Part shown: piece after piece, positions 12,679 through 21,800 of the stretch
Layout of the letters: each line of letters begins with the position of its first letter
Numbering within the stretch: the stretch's first letter is position 1
IMG/VR virus record: IMGVR_UViG_3300046169_000033
Location: 1-34,532 of that record
Direction: 5' to 3' (one strand)
DNA length: 34,532 nucleotides
Origin: a virus
The notes under the pieces: generated by a model
What the model was told of the DNA's origin: nothing
The model's input: the letters and a program-made list of their open reading frames with translations, nothing else
Databases searched by the model: none
Position numbers and translations under genes: made by a program

Positions 12679-12864
12679 TTATTTCTGGCGCTCAAAGTAA
12701 TCTGACAAACGCTCTACCGTTTCATAACGTATTTTGCCAACGCCATTCCGCACATTGTATATAGTCCAGCGCGATAATCCAGTAGCATCTGCTATAGCTT
12801 GCACTTGACGATCACCAAGCATTTGCTGGATTTTATCAAGTCGGTACATTGTACTAGCTTCCAT
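12679..12864 (-). CDS. HTH (Cro/CI-like) transcriptional regulator, 61 aa
   Basis: The ATG at 12864 (GGAGTG 8 nt upstream) gives MEASTMYRLDKIQQMLGDRQ; an earlier in-frame ATG lacks such a site. The helix-turn-helix reads VQAIADATGLSRWTIYNVRN with a following helix ETVERLSDYFERQK, as in small Cro-like repressors. It is divergent from the early plus block across a symmetric promoter-operator region. By analogy it represses its own and the opposite promoter, and motif sharing suggests it also acts on three downstream promoters. Only the DNA-binding domain is present; no cleavage or oligomerisation domain. Confidence 0.7.
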   Translation of the reverse strand: MEASTMYRLDKIQQMLGDRQVQAIADATGLSRWTIYNVRNGVGKIRYETVERLSDYFERQK

Positions 12865-12890
12865 TTTTTTCACTCCAAAAACAATTATGG

Positions 12891-12926
12891 GGTTGTGCAT
12901 AGACTACAATGCTGCTAGGTACAACC
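12891..12926. promoter_or_regulatory. Overlapping face-to-face promoters with inverted-repeat ends
   Basis: GGTTGT at 12891-12896 and ACAACC at 12921-12926 are a perfect inverted pair. They form the -35 boxes of two opposing promoters: plus TTGTGC (12893-12898), 17 bp, TAGGTA (12916-12921); minus TTGTAC (12924-12919), 17 bp, TATGCA (12901-12896). The two promoters therefore share nearly all their DNA, so only one polymerase can bind. The minus strand of the spacer contains TGTAGTCTAT, matching the motif at the three plus promoters. The -10 boxes are weak, as expected if an activator or supercoiling helps. Not tested. Confidence 0.5.
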
Positions 12927-12951
12927 CACAAAATGCAATTGGGGGTACGAA

Positions 12952-15259: not shown

Positions 15260-15737
15260 AAATCCAAGAAACATAAAGATGTTTAAAGAATTTGAGATCG
15301 GTAAACCTGTTTCTAAACTTTCTGAAGAAAACAACCTAAGCAAAAGCCGCGTATCTGAAATTCTTACAAAAATAGGACACAGAAAAGCTTATGAAAACTG
15401 GTTGAATGAGGTAAAGGCTAATTATGCATCTGGTTTGCGCCCAACATATTTAACAGCAAATTTAAAAACAAAAAATTATAATTCTTGGGGGTGGGGCATT
15501 TTTGATGATGCTATAAAAAATACTTATGCTTATTATTGGATGTATGAAGTTTTGGGAATTGAAACATTAGAGCAATTTGATGAAACACCTAACCCATCGT
15601 TACTAAGGGTTTGCACGATAGGCCCAATAATTTTACTGCAAATGAGAGAGGCAAGTAAGCAATTTAAAAAGGAAAGTAAGCAATTTAAAAATGACAAATC
15701 TTATGAACAAACCACCTTTGGGCTTGAAGGAGCCTAA
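15240..15737 (+). CDS. HTH-containing early protein, 165 aa
   Basis: The ATG at 15240 (AAGGAG upstream) gives MAMLTHKNPRNIKMFKEFEI. Residues ~18-45 (GKPVSKLSEENNLSKSRVSE, then ILTKIG) form a helix-turn-helix, as in small phage activators and resolvase tails. The middle has YNSWGWGIFDDAIKNTYAYY, rich in aromatics, and the C-terminus two tandem KQFKK/KQFKN heptapeptides. It starts inside the end of the nuclease-fold gene. No family is recognised beyond the HTH. AT-rich by eye, like its predecessor. Confidence 0.5.
   Translation: MAMLTHKNPRNIKMFKEFEIGKPVSKLSEENNLSKSRVSEILTKIGHRKAYENWLNEVKANYASGLRPTYLTANLKTKNYNSWGWGIFDDAIKNTYAYYWMYEVLGIETLEQFDETPNPSLLRVCTIGPIILLQMREASKQFKKESKQFKNDKSYEQTTFGLEGA
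15653..15691 (+). repeat. 21-bp tandem duplication in the HTH protein tail
   Basis: AAGTAAGCAATTTAAAAA occurs at 15653-15670 and again at 15674-15691, period 21 bp, so the encoded tail repeats S-K-Q-F-K. This looks like a recent in-frame slippage duplication and keeps the frame open. The second copy runs into the start region of the next gene. Confidence 0.75.
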
Positions 15738-16017
15738 AGACAAAAAAAGCGTAAAATTTTTGCGTTGGGTTAGGGAACAGCCGTGCTGCGTCTGTGAGAG
15801 GTTTGGGGAAGTACAGCAAAGCGCCACCCAAGCCCATCACCCTATCCATGATCGTCACGGCACTGAGAAGCGCCCAGATACAAGTTGTATCCCGCTATGC
15901 GAAGGCCACCATCAGGGTCTTTTTGACACATCCAAAATCGCGCTCCATCGTGAACCGAAACTTTGGCGCGAAACTTATGGGCCAGATTACAGCTATTCCC
16001 ATTCAACCGAAATATAG
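15691..16017 (+). CDS. HNH-type nuclease (DUF968/Ref-like)
   Basis: This encodes 108 aa beginning MTNLMNKPPLGLKEPKDKKS. It carries PCCVCERFGEVQQSATQAHH, then GTEKRPDTSCIPLCEGHHQG and a C-terminal W-x-E-T-Y-G-P-D segment. The C-x-x-C, A-H-H, and P-L-C-x-x-H-H set is the zinc-bound HNH pattern of DUF968/Ref-type recombination nucleases. The final 25 bp overlap the 3' end of the convergent RusA gene. The start may instead be the in-frame ATG at 15703. A role in recombination repair or DNA processing fits the SSB and annealing-protein neighbourhood. Confidence 0.65.
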   Translation: MTNLMNKPPLGLKEPKDKKSVKFLRWVREQPCCVCERFGEVQQSATQAHHPIHDRHGTEKRPDTSCIPLCEGHHQGLFDTSKIALHREPKLWRETYGPDYSYSHSTEI

Positions 16018-16458: not shown

Positions 16459-16508
16459 TTGACTTGTAGGCTATAAGCTACTATATATAATTTATAGACA
16501 ACAAGGAG
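16459..16508 (+). promoter_or_regulatory. Repeated promoter-leader element, copy 1
   Basis: TTGACT (16459-16464), 17 bp including TGTAGGCTATA, TATATA (16482-16487), then a leader TAATTTATAGACAACAAGGAG. The distance from -35 start to the end of AAGGAG is 50 nt, identical in all three copies. It drives the small gene at 16516. This copy has the best -35 box of the three. The TGTAGGCT motif lies between the boxes, where a bound repressor would block polymerase. Confidence 0.75.
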
Positions 16509-16515
16509 AACCCAG

Positions 16516-16704
16516 ATGAACAACTTTTCAGTTACATATCAAATCGGTGAAACAGACAACCCTGACACAATTTGCACACGCTTCGTGCAAGCTGATGATG
16601 CTGACATGGCTGTTGTAAAAGTTTTAGCCGAAAAAACTGAAGGCGATTATCCGCTTTCGTCAATAATCATGCTGAAAGTTACAGACGTTCAACGGGTGAC
16701 ATAA
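16516..16704 (+). CDS. Small early protein, 62 aa
   Basis: This begins MNNFSVTYQIGETDNPDTIC, with AAGGAG 7 nt upstream of the ATG. It is a compact alpha-beta protein with alternating strands (VTYQI, TRFVQADDADMAVVKVLA) and a C-terminal strand (IIMLKVTDVQRV). No family recognised. It is the first gene after element copy 1 and is followed by a UACG hairpin, so it forms a self-contained expression unit. Such short soluble proteins in early regions are often host-takeover factors; that is inference. Confidence 0.6.
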   Translation: MNNFSVTYQIGETDNPDTICTRFVQADDADMAVVKVLAEKTEGDYPLSSIIMLKVTDVQRVT

Positions 16705-16710
16705 TCAACA

Positions 16711-16724
16711 GGGGCTACGGCCCC
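16711..16724 (+). other. UACG-tetraloop hairpin 1
   Basis: GGGGC TACG GCCCC forms a 5-bp stem capped by a UNCG tetraloop, 7 bp after the stop of the 62-aa gene. Unlike the hairpin at 17017 it has no T-run behind it; GCAACGG follows and the next Shine-Dalgarno is close. It probably protects the 3' end or attenuates rather than terminates. Confidence 0.65.
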
Positions 16725-16744
16725 GCAACGGCTAGGAGGCCAAT

Positions 16745-17008
16745 ATGATGACTACCGACCAAATCAAAACTGCAACTGACGCTGATTTAGCTGAGTGGAT
16801 GGCAAACGCTGTCGCCACACAAAGTTGCACCGGCCACACCAAAGGCCACTTTAATGAAGTTGCTGCTCGCAATTACCGCGATGAGCTAATCAATCGGGGC
16901 CATGAGATCCCGACGATTGACTTCTGGGAATGCTTCAGAGGTGCAGATAGCAGCTACCGTGACAAGCTGTTTGAAACAGGAACCTATAACGGCAAAGGTT
17001 CATTCTAA
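16745..17008 (+). CDS. Small early protein, 87 aa
   Basis: This begins MMTTDQIKTATDADLAEWMA with AGGAGG 7 nt upstream; the second Met is an equal start. It has a helical N-terminus and a Cys/His segment (TQSCTGHTKGHFNEVAARNY), then RDELINRGHEIPTIDFWECF. The C, H and D residues could bind metal, but spacing does not fit a named zinc motif. It shares the transcript from element copy 1 and is followed by a true terminator. Not recognised. Confidence 0.55.
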   Translation: MMTTDQIKTATDADLAEWMANAVATQSCTGHTKGHFNEVAARNYRDELINRGHEIPTIDFWECFRGADSSYRDKLFETGTYNGKGSF

Positions 17009-17016
17009 AATAAATT

Positions 17017-17037
17017 GGGGCTACGGCCCCTTTTTTT
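17017..17037 (+). terminator. UACG-tetraloop terminator
   Basis: GGGGC TACG GCCCC (17017-17030) followed directly by seven T (17031-17037) is a canonical rho-independent terminator with a UNCG loop. It ends the first small-gene unit, and promoter element copy 2 begins 11 bp later. Confidence 0.85.
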
Positions 17038-17048
17038 ATGTTTAGGGG

Positions 17049-17098
17049 TTGCAATGTAGGCTATAGTCCCCTATATATAATTTATAGGCAACAAGGAG
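17049..17098 (+). promoter_or_regulatory. Repeated promoter-leader element, copy 2
   Basis: TTGCAA (17049-17054), 17-bp spacer starting TGTAGGCTATAG, TATATA (17072-17077), leader TAATTTATAGGCAACAAGGAG. It is 50 nt long like the others, and the leader differs from copy 1 at one position. It starts transcription of the 110-aa gene immediately after a terminator. Confidence 0.75.
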
Positions 17099-17106
17099 AT
17101 GACCTA

Positions 17107-17439
17107 ATGGAAAACGCAATGAACAACTTACTGGCCGCAATCAAATCTGATTACAGAAAATGGCATGGTGACAAACTAGATGACATCAAGAGCAGCATGA
17201 TTGCTGAGTTTGAAGATGGCCTGTCTTATAAGGTTGGCCCAAAGTATATTAAAATTACTACTAAAACCCGCCATCAAGAAATGGTTTGGGGTTTTGTGAT
17301 GAAGGCAGATGACGCCAAGTTTCAAGCCGGTGACATTCTCAAGCCCGCCGGTTGGTCAGCGCCAGCCCGCAATAAAGCGCGTGGCAATATTTTCGGTGAC
17401 TATCAAATTCAATGGACAGGCCCAAACTACTTGGTCTGA
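17107..17439 (+). CDS. Early protein, 110 aa
   Basis: The ATG at 17107 is 8 nt after AAGGAG; upstream in-frame starts would lie inside the promoter. The product begins MENAMNNLLAAIKSDYRKWH and contains SYKVGPKYIKITTKTRHQEM, VWGFVMKADDAKFQAGDILK and a basic ARNKARGNIFGDYQIQWTGP ending. This is a compact beta-rich protein, possibly nucleic-acid binding. No family recognised. A UUCG hairpin follows the stop. Confidence 0.6.
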   Translation: MENAMNNLLAAIKSDYRKWHGDKLDDIKSSMIAEFEDGLSYKVGPKYIKITTKTRHQEMVWGFVMKADDAKFQAGDILKPAGWSAPARNKARGNIFGDYQIQWTGPNYLV

Positions 17440-17445
17440 TAATCA

Positions 17446-17461
17446 GGGGGCTTCGGCCCCC
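17446..17461 (+). other. UUCG-tetraloop hairpin
   Basis: GGGGGC TTCG GCCCCC, a 6-bp stem with UUCG loop, lies 6 bp after the stop of the 110-aa gene and 22 bp before the next ATG. There is no T-run. It is the third UNCG stem within 760 bp, so it probably insulates or stabilises the upstream message while allowing read-through to the next gene. Confidence 0.65.
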
Positions 17462-17483
17462 ACTACAGCGACAGGAGAACGCT

Positions 17484-17903
17484 ATGAAACTTTATACGAA
17501 CAACAAAGGCGAATGGGCTGGAACGCAAGCTGACGCTCGCAAGCGCTTTAAAAATGACATGAGAATTATTGAGGTTCCAACCGACAAGCCAAGCTTGCTG
17601 GCATTCCTCAACGAACATCAAGTTGGCTCATTTGATGCTCTTGGCAGTAAGCCAGCCGATGACCAGCTTTCCGATATGATGGGTGGCAATCCCTTAGACA
17701 GCTTTCCAGATGCCCCTTTAAAATTTAAGATGAGCCACGGCCCTGATGGCGATGTGCGCTTGTCACGGCAGAACCCAGACAGCCACCCGCACCGCTGGGA
17801 TACTATCCGCGAATGCGCAGAGAAAGCATCTTTCAAGGATCTAGGCGTTGCTCTCGCGGTTCTGATGAACCGGCTGGATGAGGTGGCCGATCAAATCTCA
17901 TAA
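17484..17903 (+). CDS. Early protein, 139 aa
   Basis: The ATG at 17484 has ACAGGAGAAC just upstream, so this start is preferred over an earlier in-frame ATG in the hairpin region. The product begins MKLYTNNKGEWAGTQADARK and contains MRIIEVPTDKPSLLAFLNEH, an acidic low-complexity middle, SHPHRWDTIRECAEKASFKD and a helical tail. It shares element copy 2. No family recognised. It is followed by a strong terminator and promoter copy 3. Confidence 0.55.
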   Translation: MKLYTNNKGEWAGTQADARKRFKNDMRIIEVPTDKPSLLAFLNEHQVGSFDALGSKPADDQLSDMMGGNPLDSFPDAPLKFKMSHGPDGDVRLSRQNPDSHPHRWDTIRECAEKASFKDLGVALAVLMNRLDEVADQIS

Positions 17904-17941
17904 CCTGTCAAGGTAACAACTGGCAGCAGTTTATCTCAAAG

Positions 17942-17982
17942 AGTTTGCTATTAACCTAAAATGGTTTTTAGCAAACTTTTTT
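17942..17982 (+). terminator. Terminator before the third promoter element
   Basis: AGTTTGCTA (17942-17950) and TAGCAAACT (17969-17977) form a perfect 9-bp outer stem; inner AACC/GGTT pairs lengthen it across a small internal loop. Five more T follow (17978-17982). It ends the second unit, and element copy 3 begins two bases later. Confidence 0.8.
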
Positions 17983-17984
17983 AC

Positions 17985-18034
17985 TTGCAATGTAGTCTGC
18001 GATCTCTATAATAGCATCTGTAAGCAACAAGGAG
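17985..18034 (+). promoter_or_regulatory. Repeated promoter-leader element, copy 3
   Basis: TTGCAA (17985-17990), 16-bp spacer starting TGTAGTCTGC, TATAAT (18007-18012), leader with GCAACAAGGAG. The spacer is one base shorter than in copies 1 and 2, yet the total -35 to SD length is again 50 nt. The -10 box is perfect consensus. It probably drives the remaining plus genes to the terminator at 20423. Confidence 0.75.
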
Positions 18035-18040
18035 AATAAA

Positions 18041-18610
18041 ATGGCATACGATCCGACACACAAATATGAGCATAATTACGAACCAGCTATTCAAGCTCGC
18101 AAGATGGCAAACGCTGCCCACACAAAGCGCGTCAACTGGATTGCATCTGATGATCGCGCTCAAGAGATCATTGATTTTGTAGCTGACTACAGCCCAGAAG
18201 GTGATGGTTTTTTCTCAGCTTGCAACAAAGGCATCTGGCAGTTTGGATCTCTTACACCCAACATGCGTAATGCCATAGTTAAGGTGCTGGACAAACGCGC
18301 CGCTCAAAAAGCAGAATGGGCTGATAGAGACAGCAAGTGTGAGTTTGTTGGCACAGTAGGTGAGCGCCAAGCCTTCTCTCTCAAGGTTATTATCATTGTA
18401 GAGTTAGAAAGCATGTATGGATCTTCGTACCTTCATGTATGCCGTGACGATAATCATAATATTATTATTTACAAAGGCTCACAATATTGGGGCAGCGGCG
18501 CTGAAGTAACTTGCACAGCCAAGGTCAAAGACCATGAAGTGCGCGAAGGCGTTAAGCAAACCATCATCCAGCGGCCCACCAAAGTTAAAGTGAATGGGGA
18601 GAATTACTAA
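18041..18610 (+). CDS. Probable OB-like nucleic-acid-binding early protein, 189 aa
   Basis: This begins MAYDPTHKYEHNYEPAIQAR, 7 nt after AAGGAG. The N-terminal half is helical (WIASDDRAQEIIDFVADYSP, and SLTPNMRNAIVKVLDKRA). The C-terminal ~85 residues (EFVGTVGERQAFSLKVIIIV, HVCRDDNHNIIIYKGS, EVTCTAKVKDHEVREGVKQT, then IIQRPTKVKV) follow the strand pattern of an OB-like domain found in host and phage proteins: G-E-R, a RDD strand, a T-A-x-V strand and a basic final strand. Single-strand nucleic acid binding is plausible. It opens the third unit. Confidence 0.5.
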   Translation: MAYDPTHKYEHNYEPAIQARKMANAAHTKRVNWIASDDRAQEIIDFVADYSPEGDGFFSACNKGIWQFGSLTPNMRNAIVKVLDKRAAQKAEWADRDSKCEFVGTVGERQAFSLKVIIIVELESMYGSSYLHVCRDDNHNIIIYKGSQYWGSGAEVTCTAKVKDHEVREGVKQTIIQRPTKVKVNGENY

Positions 18611-18870
18611 TGACTTGCAAACAATGTAAAGGCACGGGCCTTATCAGCTACTCACACCAGCACAACTGGTTTGATGACCGTGTAACCATCACAGAGGCTT
18701 GTGACTGCAACACAGGCCCAACCGATGCTGAAGTTGATATGCTCAACGCGCAGCTTAAATCTGCTTCGCTCTATGGCACGTTAGATGAGATCATCAAGAT
18801 CGTGCAAAGCATCAAGCACACTCCAACGCGCAACCAGCTATGGCGCAGCTATGGAGTTATCAATGACTAA
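18610..18870 (+). CDS. Small protein with zinc-finger-like cysteines, 86 aa
   Basis: The ATG shares a base with the previous stop (TAATG). The N-terminus MTCKQCKGTGLISYSHQHNW and, 20 residues on, CDCN form C-x-x-C-x-G-x-G ... C-x-C, which resembles half of a DnaJ-type zinc motif. The rest is helical (AQLKSASLYGTLDEIIKIVQ). It may bind a partner or nucleic acid. Function unknown. Confidence 0.55.
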   Translation: MTCKQCKGTGLISYSHQHNWFDDRVTITEACDCNTGPTDAEVDMLNAQLKSASLYGTLDEIIKIVQSIKHTPTRNQLWRSYGVIND

Positions 18871-18955
18871 TTGGGTACAAGACATCATCATCACCGTGGC
18901 GATTGCTGCGGTGGTGTTGGGCTGGATCTTTGGCGTTAGCATGGGGTGGATGTAA
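18863..18955 (+). CDS. Small membrane protein, 30 aa
   Basis: The ATG at 18863 lies within the previous gene's end (8 bp overlap). The product MTNWVQDIIITVAIAAVVLG then WIFGVSMGWM is one transmembrane helix flanked by polar ends, N-terminus probably outside. Its stop overlaps the next start (TAATG), which supports real translation. It resembles no named holin; an early inner-membrane effector is possible. Confidence 0.55.
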   Translation: MTNWVQDIIITVAIAAVVLGWIFGVSMGWM

Positions 18956-19281
18956 TGTCATATGGCATATGTTATCGCGGCCCATATTATGTTTACGCCT
19001 TTATGAACGATATGAATGAGTATTTATATATTGGCAGAACCAGAGATATTCATCAGCGCATTTCTCAACATAAAGGCACAAAGCATTGGTTTTCAGAAGT
19101 TAAGGAAGTTTGGTGTCAAGAAATTTTTACTGACCAATATTTAGAAGTAAATGACCATGAACGCACTTTGATTGATTTTTTTAAGCCAAAATACAACAAG
19201 ACCGCTCATAAACAGCCAAGACTAGAAACGCCGCCAATTTATAAATGCGAGTTTATTGTTAGTGAAAGGTGTGACGCATGA
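18955..19281 (+). CDS. GIY-YIG-type endonuclease-like protein, 108 aa
   Basis: The ATG at 18955 (TAATG overlap) gives MSYGICYRGPYYVYAFMNDM. The core reads YVYAF ... YLYIGRTRDIHQRISQHK, the GIY-YIG pattern with V-Y and Y-I-G, a conserved Arg (R in GRTRD), His in the QH segment, and a C-terminal catalytic Glu candidate (DHERTLIDFFKPKYN). The last motif matches minimal GIY-YIG domains. No long DNA-binding tail is present. It could nick DNA or be a homing-type remnant. It is followed by an overlapping gene (ATGA). Confidence 0.65.
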   Translation: MSYGICYRGPYYVYAFMNDMNEYLYIGRTRDIHQRISQHKGTKHWFSEVKEVWCQEIFTDQYLEVNDHERTLIDFFKPKYNKTAHKQPRLETPPIYKCEFIVSERCDA

Positions 19282-20955: not shown

Positions 20956-21347
20956 TTGGTTAAGCCTTTCTGCTTTTCATATGTCCTAAGACCACCAATT
21001 CCTAACATGCCGCCAAGAACAGTCAAAAGCGTTCCCATGTCAAACTCTGGCAAGGGCGGGATTTCTGTTCCCGTTAAAGCTACAAAAAAAAGGGCAACAG
21101 GCTGGCCAACAAAATGCCAACCAAAGGCAATAGCACAGATGTAACCCACGCTAGGACGCCAGCCACCTTTAAAAGCTGATCCACTTGCTGCCTCTGCTGT
21201 GTTGAGTTGTATTTGAGCGAGGGCCAAGTCTTGCGCGTGTCTATCCGACATTGTAGCAATTTCGTGCGCGAGCTTTGCCTTCTCGTCAGCATCAGGAATA
21301 AACTTGTCTAAGAGGCCAGTGACCGGCGCTATTAGCTTGTCAATCAT
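20952..21347 (-). CDS. 3-TM holin
   Basis: The ATG at 21347 (GGAG 5 nt upstream) gives MIDKLIAPVTGLLDKFIPDA, preferred over an upstream in-frame ATG. The amphipathic N-terminus (DEKAKLAHEIATMSDRHAQD) precedes W-R-P-S-V-G-Y-I-C-A-I-A-F membrane segments and the C-terminal MGTLLTVLGGMLGIGGLRTY-EKQKG signature of the holin family named for gene-transfer-agent release. It should open the inner membrane for the amidase. 131 aa, coupled to both neighbours by ATGA overlaps. Confidence 0.75.
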   Translation of the reverse strand: MIDKLIAPVTGLLDKFIPDADEKAKLAHEIATMSDRHAQDLALAQIQLNTAEAASGSAFKGGWRPSVGYICAIAFGWHFVGQPVALFFVALTGTEIPPLPEFDMGTLLTVLGGMLGIGGLRTYEKQKGLTK

Positions 21348-21544
21348 TTCTCCGAACCTAACCACACGGCAAACGCGCCCGTCATGGCCCCAGAGCAAAC
21401 GCTAATCATTGCGGATTGCTGCGTTGACAAATCATCAAGGCTCATTCCCCACTCCAAAACGCGAATGTACATTACCGTCATAACGGCCATCATAATGCGC
21501 GGCATTATTTTCCAAGCTAATATCTTTTCCATAGCTATAGTCAT
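21344..21544 (-). CDS. Small membrane protein of the lysis cluster, 66 aa
   Basis: This begins MTIAMEKILAWKIMPRIMMA, with AGAGG upstream. Two hydrophobic stretches (IMMAVMTVMYIRVL and ISVCSGAMTGAFAVWLG) indicate two membrane helices with a short polar loop. Its stop overlaps the holin start. It may act as a second holin or antiholin; family not recognised. Confidence 0.55.
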   Translation of the reverse strand: MTIAMEKILAWKIMPRIMMAVMTVMYIRVLEWGMSLDDLSTQQSAMISVCSGAMTGAFAVWLGSEK

Positions 21545-21545
21545 A

Positions 21546-21800
21546 TCAAACCTCTATGTTTATCTTAGTTCCTTGCGGTCTATCCGCTGTAGTCTTGCGG
21601 CCAAACCTATCATAAGTTTCGTTTAGATCAAATCTTTGCTTTGCAAGCGCTTCTAGGTGGCTGTGGTTGGCCCTATGCTCTTTCTCTACCCTTTGCTCTA
21701 CCAGATGCGTTTCTATGCGCTCACGCGATCTGGTTTGCTGGTGTATGTCCGACTGCACGTTAAACGGTGCGCTGCCTATGCCTGATAGCCCGTCAGCCAT
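21546..21800 (-). CDS. Small soluble virion-type protein, 84 aa
   Basis: This begins MADGLSGIGSAPFNVQSDIH directly after the upstream stop. It is strongly helical and charged in the middle (RSRERIETHLVEQRVEKEHR), likely a coiled coil, and ends in a short strand (GTKINIEV). No membrane segment. It lies between two membrane-protein genes in the late operon. Function unknown; a tail or head accessory role is inferred. Confidence 0.5.
   Translation of the reverse strand: MADGLSGIGSAPFNVQSDIHQQTRSRERIETHLVEQRVEKEHRANHSHLEALAKQRFDLNETYDRFGRKTTADRPQGTKINIEV

What the first reader, a model, noticed from the sequence alone, without database searches (positions are those of the whole stretch)
16459..18034. 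Three copies of an exact 50-nt promoter-leader element
Elements at 16459, 17049 and 17985 share -35 box, TGTAG[GT]CT in the spacer, -10 box and a leader ending CAACAAGGAG. The distance from -35 to SD is 50 nt in all three, even though spacer 3 is one base shorter. Each drives small unknown genes and is preceded by a terminator or divergent gene, which suggests a modular way of adding independently controlled early genes.
Basis: seen in the sequence. Interest (0 to 1): 0.7.

Follow-up and report, generated by a model that had tools for sequence, protein, structure and literature searches.

The report
Lineage-specific promoter slots swapping phage genes
A marine Roseobacter-type virus repeats one 50-base start signal in front of small genes; relatives keep the signal while the genes behind it are swapped whole, and other viruses carry the same genes behind their own, different start signal.

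Summary
Three elements of exactly 50 nt (TTG…GGAG) lie at 16459, 17049 and 17985. They share a -35, GTAG[GT]CT, a -10 and the leader CAACAAGGAG, but they are alike (31-42 of 50 identical), not identical. In related contigs all 15 distinct genuine type-A variants are 50 nt, including a fourth element (E4) absent from the window.

The modular reading is strongly supported. In sister contigs each element stays in place while the gene behind it is replaced, deleted or added. Homology stops within about 10 nt of the start codon and resumes at or just after the stop codon. Terminator hairpins lie just upstream of E2 and E3.

The reverse also holds: the same genes in other phages sit behind different promoters that are repeated in those genomes. 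Roseobacter phage CRP-902 has the E3 gene at 92.6% DNA identity, behind an unrelated promoter carrying a TGACA-NN-TGTCA palindrome. The promoter follows the phage; the gene does not carry it. At least six promoter types precede this one gene.

This resembles T4 PeSL cassettes and mycobacteriophage ESAS in another phage group, with swapping resolved to single ORFs. "Early" timing and the regulator are untested; a phage Cro-like protein is a weak candidate.

The parts
16459..16508 (+). Promoter-leader element E1 (CTTGAC-N17-CTATAT, GTAGGCT core, leader CAACAAGGAG)
   Evidence: conserved in L069, L075, L107, L120, L179 in front of different genes
17049..17098 (+). Promoter-leader element E2
   Evidence: precedes a 110-aa or 197-aa ORF in sister contigs
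17985..18034 (+). Promoter-leader element E3
   Evidence: 98-100% identical over the last 56 nt in four type-A gene variants; replaced by E4 in L179, L069, L090, L107, L075
17017..17037 (+). Terminator GGGGCTACGGCCCC + T7 just upstream of E2 (UNCG loop)
17938..17982 (+). Terminator-like hairpin AGTTTGCTA..TAGCAAACT + T6 just upstream of E3
   Evidence: -21.1 kcal/mol, z -6.9
16711..16724 (+). UNCG hairpin after the 62-aa ORF; right-hand boundary of the swapped ORF
17446..17461 (+). UNCG hairpin (GGGGGCTTCGGCCCCC) after the 110-aa ORF
16516..16704 (+). 62-aa ORF, first gene of slot 1, no family; homologues in CRP-901/902 (77/75%) behind type-B promoters
16745..17008 (+). 87-aa ORF, second gene of slot 1 (another gene here in L107, L075)
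17107..17439 (+). 110-aa ORF, first gene of slot 2 (PHROG 5014 and 3274, unknown function)
17484..17903 (+). 139-aa ORF, second gene of slot 2
18041..18610 (+). 189-aa ORF of slot 3 (PHROG 27218, unknown function); at least six promoter types precede its homologues
18610..18870 (+). 86-aa ORF; follows the 189-aa gene here, but is driven directly by E4 in five sister contigs
12679..12900 (-). Cro-like helix-turn-helix gene (HTH_3); candidate regulator of the type-A elements; its upstream holds TGTAGTCTATGC (TGTAGTCT at 12908-12901, reverse strand)

Best explanation
Each element is a complete sigma-70-type promoter plus translation leader of the phage's own design. Each forms a fixed slot that expresses whatever small accessory ORF (or two-gene unit) lies behind it. 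Shown from sequence: the elements are repeated in one genome; slots 2 and 3 are cut off from upstream transcription by terminator-like hairpins (slot 1 by divergence from RusA); ORFs are replaced, deleted or added between sister phages with breakpoints at the leader/start codon and at the stop codon/hairpin; and the same ORFs in unrelated backbones stand behind those phages' own repeated promoters. Inferred: the host RNA polymerase reads the elements; the shared leader and hairpin act as short homology for recombination, so an incoming ORF is put under the resident promoter; the sequence between -35 and -10 (GTAGKCT in type A, TGACA-NN-TGTCA in type B, ATACT-N6-AGTAT in C and E) is a binding site for a lineage-specific factor, most likely a repressor, that sets all slots of one phage together.
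For: Repetition within genomes, types differing between genomes: CRP-902 has six copies, CRP-901 five, type C genomes two or three. No locus carries both A and B among 39 loci matching the A pattern (a few by chance) and 41 matching B. Same gene, different promoter: A-B pairs of the 189-aa gene reach 92.6% CDS identity with upstream identity 0.50-0.64 (shuffled 0.47), while A-A pairs (CDS 88-98%) keep 0.98-1.00 and B-B pairs (CDS 73-98%) keep 0.77-0.98. In the gene tree the type-A genes branch next to CRP-902 inside the type-B gene clade (100/100), and window vs CRP-902 (pS 0.24) is closer than window vs type-A L006/L150 (pS 0.30-0.37). Slot junctions: E1 slot homology ends at 16519 and resumes at 16702 around an ORF 16516-16704; E2 slot ends at 17098 and resumes at 17439, the stop codon; the E3 unit is absent between 17987 and 18615. 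Deletion alleles have junctions in CAACA, present in both leader and post-stop sequence. Backbones differ: window and CRP-902 share few proteins. Operator symmetry: 37 of 37 distinct type-B elements have matching half-sites, including one double change TGCCA..TGGCA, though the search pattern favoured symmetry.
Against: No transcription start was mapped. No regulator is identified: the gp12-type HTH of type B, C and F genomes keeps its recognition helix while the promoters differ, and its own TTTACAG..CTGTAAA site is not in the elements. The type-A core is not clearly palindromic in all copies. Type is confounded with backbone for A and B, so homogenisation is shown for few lineages. The nearest backbone relative checked, Octadecabacter DB virus 2, has no such repeats. 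Slot comparisons rest on a handful of closely related metagenomic contigs.
Confidence: 0.75

Rival explanations
1. Plain vertical duplication: three ordinary strong promoters that arose by duplication with their genes, no special modularity.
For: E1 and E2 are 84% identical and adjacent; E1 matches the alphaproteobacterial promoter consensus.
Against: The genes behind the elements are unrelated and are exchanged between sister contigs while the element stays; near-identical genes elsewhere have unrelated promoters.
Confidence: 0.08
2. Mobile promoter-terminator cassettes of the PeSL kind: the regulatory piece itself moves between sites and carries genes along.
For: Terminator-promoter composite; L109 has an E2-type element in the E1 position; E3 plus its gene behaves as an added unit.
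Against: In most comparisons the promoter stays and the ORF changes; across lineages no promoter was seen to have moved with the gene.
Confidence: 0.2
3. The repeated sequence is kept by RNA-level function of the leader (translation enhancement or mRNA binding), and the promoter similarity is secondary.
For: CAACAAGGAG is the most conserved part of E1-E4; the -35-to-SD distance is fixed at 50 nt in all genuine type-A variants.
Against: GTAGKCT in the untranscribed spacer is conserved too; type B distances vary by several nt; the leaders show no significant structure.
Confidence: 0.12
4. The type-A elements are operators of the phage Cro-like protein (12679-12900 reverse strand), which turns the slots off.
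For: GCAATGTAGTCT, identical over 12 nt to E3, lies upstream of this HTH gene in contig G002; the window and G004 have GCATTGTAGTCT; weak local match in the upstream search (score 16 against a null maximum of 12). Its recognition helix differs from that of the B/C/F proteins.
Against: Few sites; the dyad is not clear in E2, E3, E4; no binding data.
Confidence: 0.25

Closest known systems
PeSL (promoter-early stem-loop) cassettes of T4-like phages (Arbiol 2010, Comeau 2014; cited in PMC4503421 and PMC4177764; originals not held)
   Same: Composite of terminator stem-loop and promoter between small accessory genes, associated with gene shuffling
   Different: Not a T4-like phage; the promoter sequence is private to each phage lineage and stays in place while single ORFs change behind it; dyads between -35 and -10 in types B, C and E
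SAS/ESAS of Cluster K mycobacteriophages (PMC3203893; PMC12699233)
   Same: Repeated at starts of small genes within a genome, includes the ribosome-binding region, inverted-repeat part whose consensus differs between subclusters, suspected protein binding site
   Different: No GGGATAGGAGCCC, no pair of 17-bp repeats; ESAS were reported to stay with gene families, here promoter and gene family are uncoupled between lineages
CtrA-controlled promoters in alphaproteobacterial phages (PMC9437464)
   Same: One promoter type (G, L297-L299) in front of the 62-aa gene has TTAA-N7-TTAA
   Different: Types A-F have other spacer motifs; the CtrA site is not present in the window elements

Membership tests
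PeSL of T4-like phages | Terminator stem-loop joined to a promoter in a short intergenic stretch | tested here: met
   E2 and E3 preceded by terminator hairpins within about 20 nt; E1 by a divergent gene instead
PeSL of T4-like phages | Located where accessory genes are shuffled between relatives | tested here: met
PeSL of T4-like phages | Host is a T4-like myovirus using T4-type early promoters | tested here: not met
   Portal nearest to Octadecabacter DB virus 2, whose annotation includes a tail tubular protein; none of the window proteins scanned gave a hit named as T4-type; E1 fits the alphaproteobacterial consensus
SAS/ESAS of Cluster K mycobacteriophages | 13-bp SAS GGGATAGGAGCCC at start codons | tested here: not met
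   Leader is CAACAAGGAG
SAS/ESAS of Cluster K mycobacteriophages | Imperfect 17-bp inverted repeats separated by 4-13 bp upstream of the SAS | tested here: not met
   Type A lacks them; type B has one 12-bp palindrome inside the promoter spacer
Alphaproteobacterial sigma-70 promoter | CTTGAC-N17-CTATAT | tested here: met
   E1 12 of 12; E2 with weaker -35; E3 with weaker -35 and TATAAT at the same place
Alphaproteobacterial sigma-70 promoter | Transcript 5' end at the expected place | not testable with these tools
   no RNA data

The most novel reading that the evidence does not exclude
Marine Roseobacter-type phages carry a private promoter address, uniform within a genome and different between lineages, and small accessory ORFs circulate among unrelated phages as bare coding units that are docked codon-exactly behind the resident promoter, so that every acquired gene falls at once under the resident phage's own regulator.
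Probability: 0.35. Interest if true: 0.75.

Novelty: new variant of a known kind. Interest (0 to 1): 0.56.

Why it matters
How phages place foreign accessory genes under correct control after horizontal transfer is an open question. Here one gene is found behind at least six promoter types, with near-identical coding sequence and unrelated promoters in two backbones, and slots are seen filled, emptied and refilled with breakpoints at start and stop codons. This makes the question testable in cultivated phages (CRP-901/902). It also gives a practical handle: the repeated promoter marks likely accessory genes of unknown function in these phages.

Tried and rejected
(1) Duplication of promoter with gene: rejected, genes behind the elements are unrelated. 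(2) The element as a hallmark of the gene: rejected. (3) gp12-type HTH as regulator of the B/C/F promoters: disfavoured, its own conserved dyad is not in the elements. (4) Spacer 3 shorter by one: not needed if the -10 is CTATAT/TATAAT at the same column. (5) Bacterial genomes: the loose pattern gave 76 scattered hits that looked like background, none convincingly of this kind. (6) Cargo function by fold: the 189-aa protein has a helical N-terminus and a C-terminal beta domain whose weak best matches are largely OB-fold proteins (E about 3e-3, TMq about 0.3); the 110-aa protein matched nothing; not pursued. (7) Backbone relative Octadecabacter DB virus 2: no repeated promoter.

Full report
The observation. 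The window is a 34.5-kb IMG/VR virus contig whose nearest isolates at one locus are Roseobacter phages CRP-901/902. Three elements of exactly 50 nt from TTG to GGAG lie at 16459, 17049 and 17985. They are alike (42, 35 and 31 of 50 identical), not identical. The three are the strongest direct-repeat family of the region, and the matches of E3 to the other two are well above shuffles. E1 fits CTTGAC-N17-CTATAT, the consensus quoted for Sinorhizobium in PMC2873474, without a mismatch. In that reading the three align without gaps, so the 'one base shorter' spacer is a choice of -10, while the constant 50 nt is real: all 15 distinct genuine type-A variants found in related contigs have it (four other regex matches, three of them not 50 nt, were judged chance).

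Surroundings. E2 follows a GGGGCTACGGCCCC-T7 terminator. E3 follows a long hairpin with a T run (-21.1 kcal/mol, z -6.9). E1 diverges from a RusA gene. UNCG-loop hairpins follow the first ORF of slot 1 and the ORFs before and after E2. The genes behind the elements have no known function. Next to the array lie an SSB, a NinB/Orf-like recombination mediator, RusA, an HNH protein (15691-16017) and an endonuclease-like ORF (18946-19281), a plausible recombination setting.

Slots. In sister contigs with about 93-98% identical flanks the element stays and the content changes. Slot 1: 62 aa (window, L075), 74 aa (L120, L179), 98 aa (L069), 134 aa (L107), or no first ORF (G002, L090, L175), where the junction lies in CAACA, present both in the leader and after the stop codon. 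L109 has an E2-type element in this position with a 197-aa gene. Slot 2: 110 aa or 197 aa (L075). Slot 3: E3 plus the 189-aa gene, or, in L179, L069, L090, L107 and L075, no such gene and a fourth element, E4 (also 50 nt), that drives the 86-aa gene directly. Breakpoints: E1 slot homology ends at 16519 and resumes at 16702 (ORF 16516-16704); E2 slot ends at 17098 and resumes at 17439 (stop 17439).

Same genes, other promoters. The 189-aa gene was found behind six promoter types A-F and the 62-aa gene behind A, B and a type G with TTAA-N7-TTAA, the CtrA motif of alphaproteobacteria (PMC9437464). Type B, in CRP-901/902 and many contigs, has TGTGACA-NN-TGTCA between -35 and -10 and the leader TATAGAGAGAGAGGA, in six (CRP-902) and five (CRP-901) copies per genome. 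Type C copies share ATACT-N6-AGTAT (read by eye). No locus has both A and B. Among pairs of the 189-aa gene, upstream identity is 0.98-1.00 within A (CDS 88-98%), 0.77-0.98 within B (CDS 73-98%) and 0.50-0.64 between A and B even where the CDS is 92.6% identical (shuffled 0.47). The gene tree puts the type-A genes next to CRP-902 inside the type-B gene clade (100/100), and synonymous distance to CRP-902 (0.24) is below that to two type-A contigs (0.30-0.37). Apart from these genes and a few others the window and CRP-902 have little in common. So the gene moved between backbones, and the promoter did not move with it.

Mechanism. Shown: repetition, terminator-like hairpins before slots 2 and 3, ORF-level exchange, uncoupling of gene and promoter between lineages. 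Inferred: host RNA polymerase use, recombination through short shared leader and hairpin sequence, and a lineage-specific factor bound in the spacer. For type B the palindrome supports a dimeric binder (with a pattern bias toward symmetry). For type A the Cro-like HTH gene at 12679-12900 has a 12-nt match to E3 (GCAATGTAGTCT) upstream in G002, a weak lead. In B, C and F genomes the equivalent HTH keeps its recognition helix and its own TTTACAG..CTGTAAA dyad while the slot promoters differ, so it is probably not their regulator.

Known systems. T4 PeSLs are the nearest in architecture; mycobacteriophage ESAS the nearest in repeated, subcluster-specific start signals (PMC3203893). Defining features of both fail here (membership table), so this is filed as a new variant of a known kind. 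The CRP-901/902 paper reports a strictly lytic lifestyle and the word 'promoter' does not occur in its main text (PMC10149686).

Limits. No RNA data; type is confounded with backbone for A and B; few sister contigs; backbone relative Octadecabacter DB virus 2 has no such repeats, so the trait is not general.

Noticed in passing
L297 2955, L298 780, L299 1340: The 62-aa gene stands behind promoters with TTAA-N7-TTAA, the CtrA site of alphaproteobacteria, suggesting host CtrA control of the same accessory gene in other phages.
   Followed up: partly
CRP-901 (L036) and CRP-902 (L035) upstream of gp12; G007, G009, G012, G014, G019: A conserved small Cro-like protein has a TTTACAG-N13-CTGTAAA-like dyad at its own promoter in type B, C and F genomes.
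   Followed up: partly
window 12862-12951: Divergent region between the Cro-like gene and a 61-aa ORF has GGGTTGT..ACAACCC arms enclosing TGTAGTCTATGC.
   Followed up: partly
window 15691-16017 and 18946-19281: HNH and endonuclease-like ORFs flank the slot array on both sides; they could drive exchange of the region.
   Followed up: no
window 16711-16724, 17017-17030, 17446-17461: UNCG-loop hairpins (GGGGCTACGGCCCC and like) follow small ORFs of slots 1 and 2; only one has a T run.
   Followed up: partly
window 18041-18610: 189-aa protein: helical N-terminus and C-terminal beta domain with weak OB-fold matches; distant homologues in Sinorhizobium, Caulobacter and Vibrio phages.
   Followed up: partly
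window 21344-21800: Two small reverse-strand ORFs are 79-86% identical to CRP-902 proteins although most of the rest of the two genomes is not alike.
   Followed up: no
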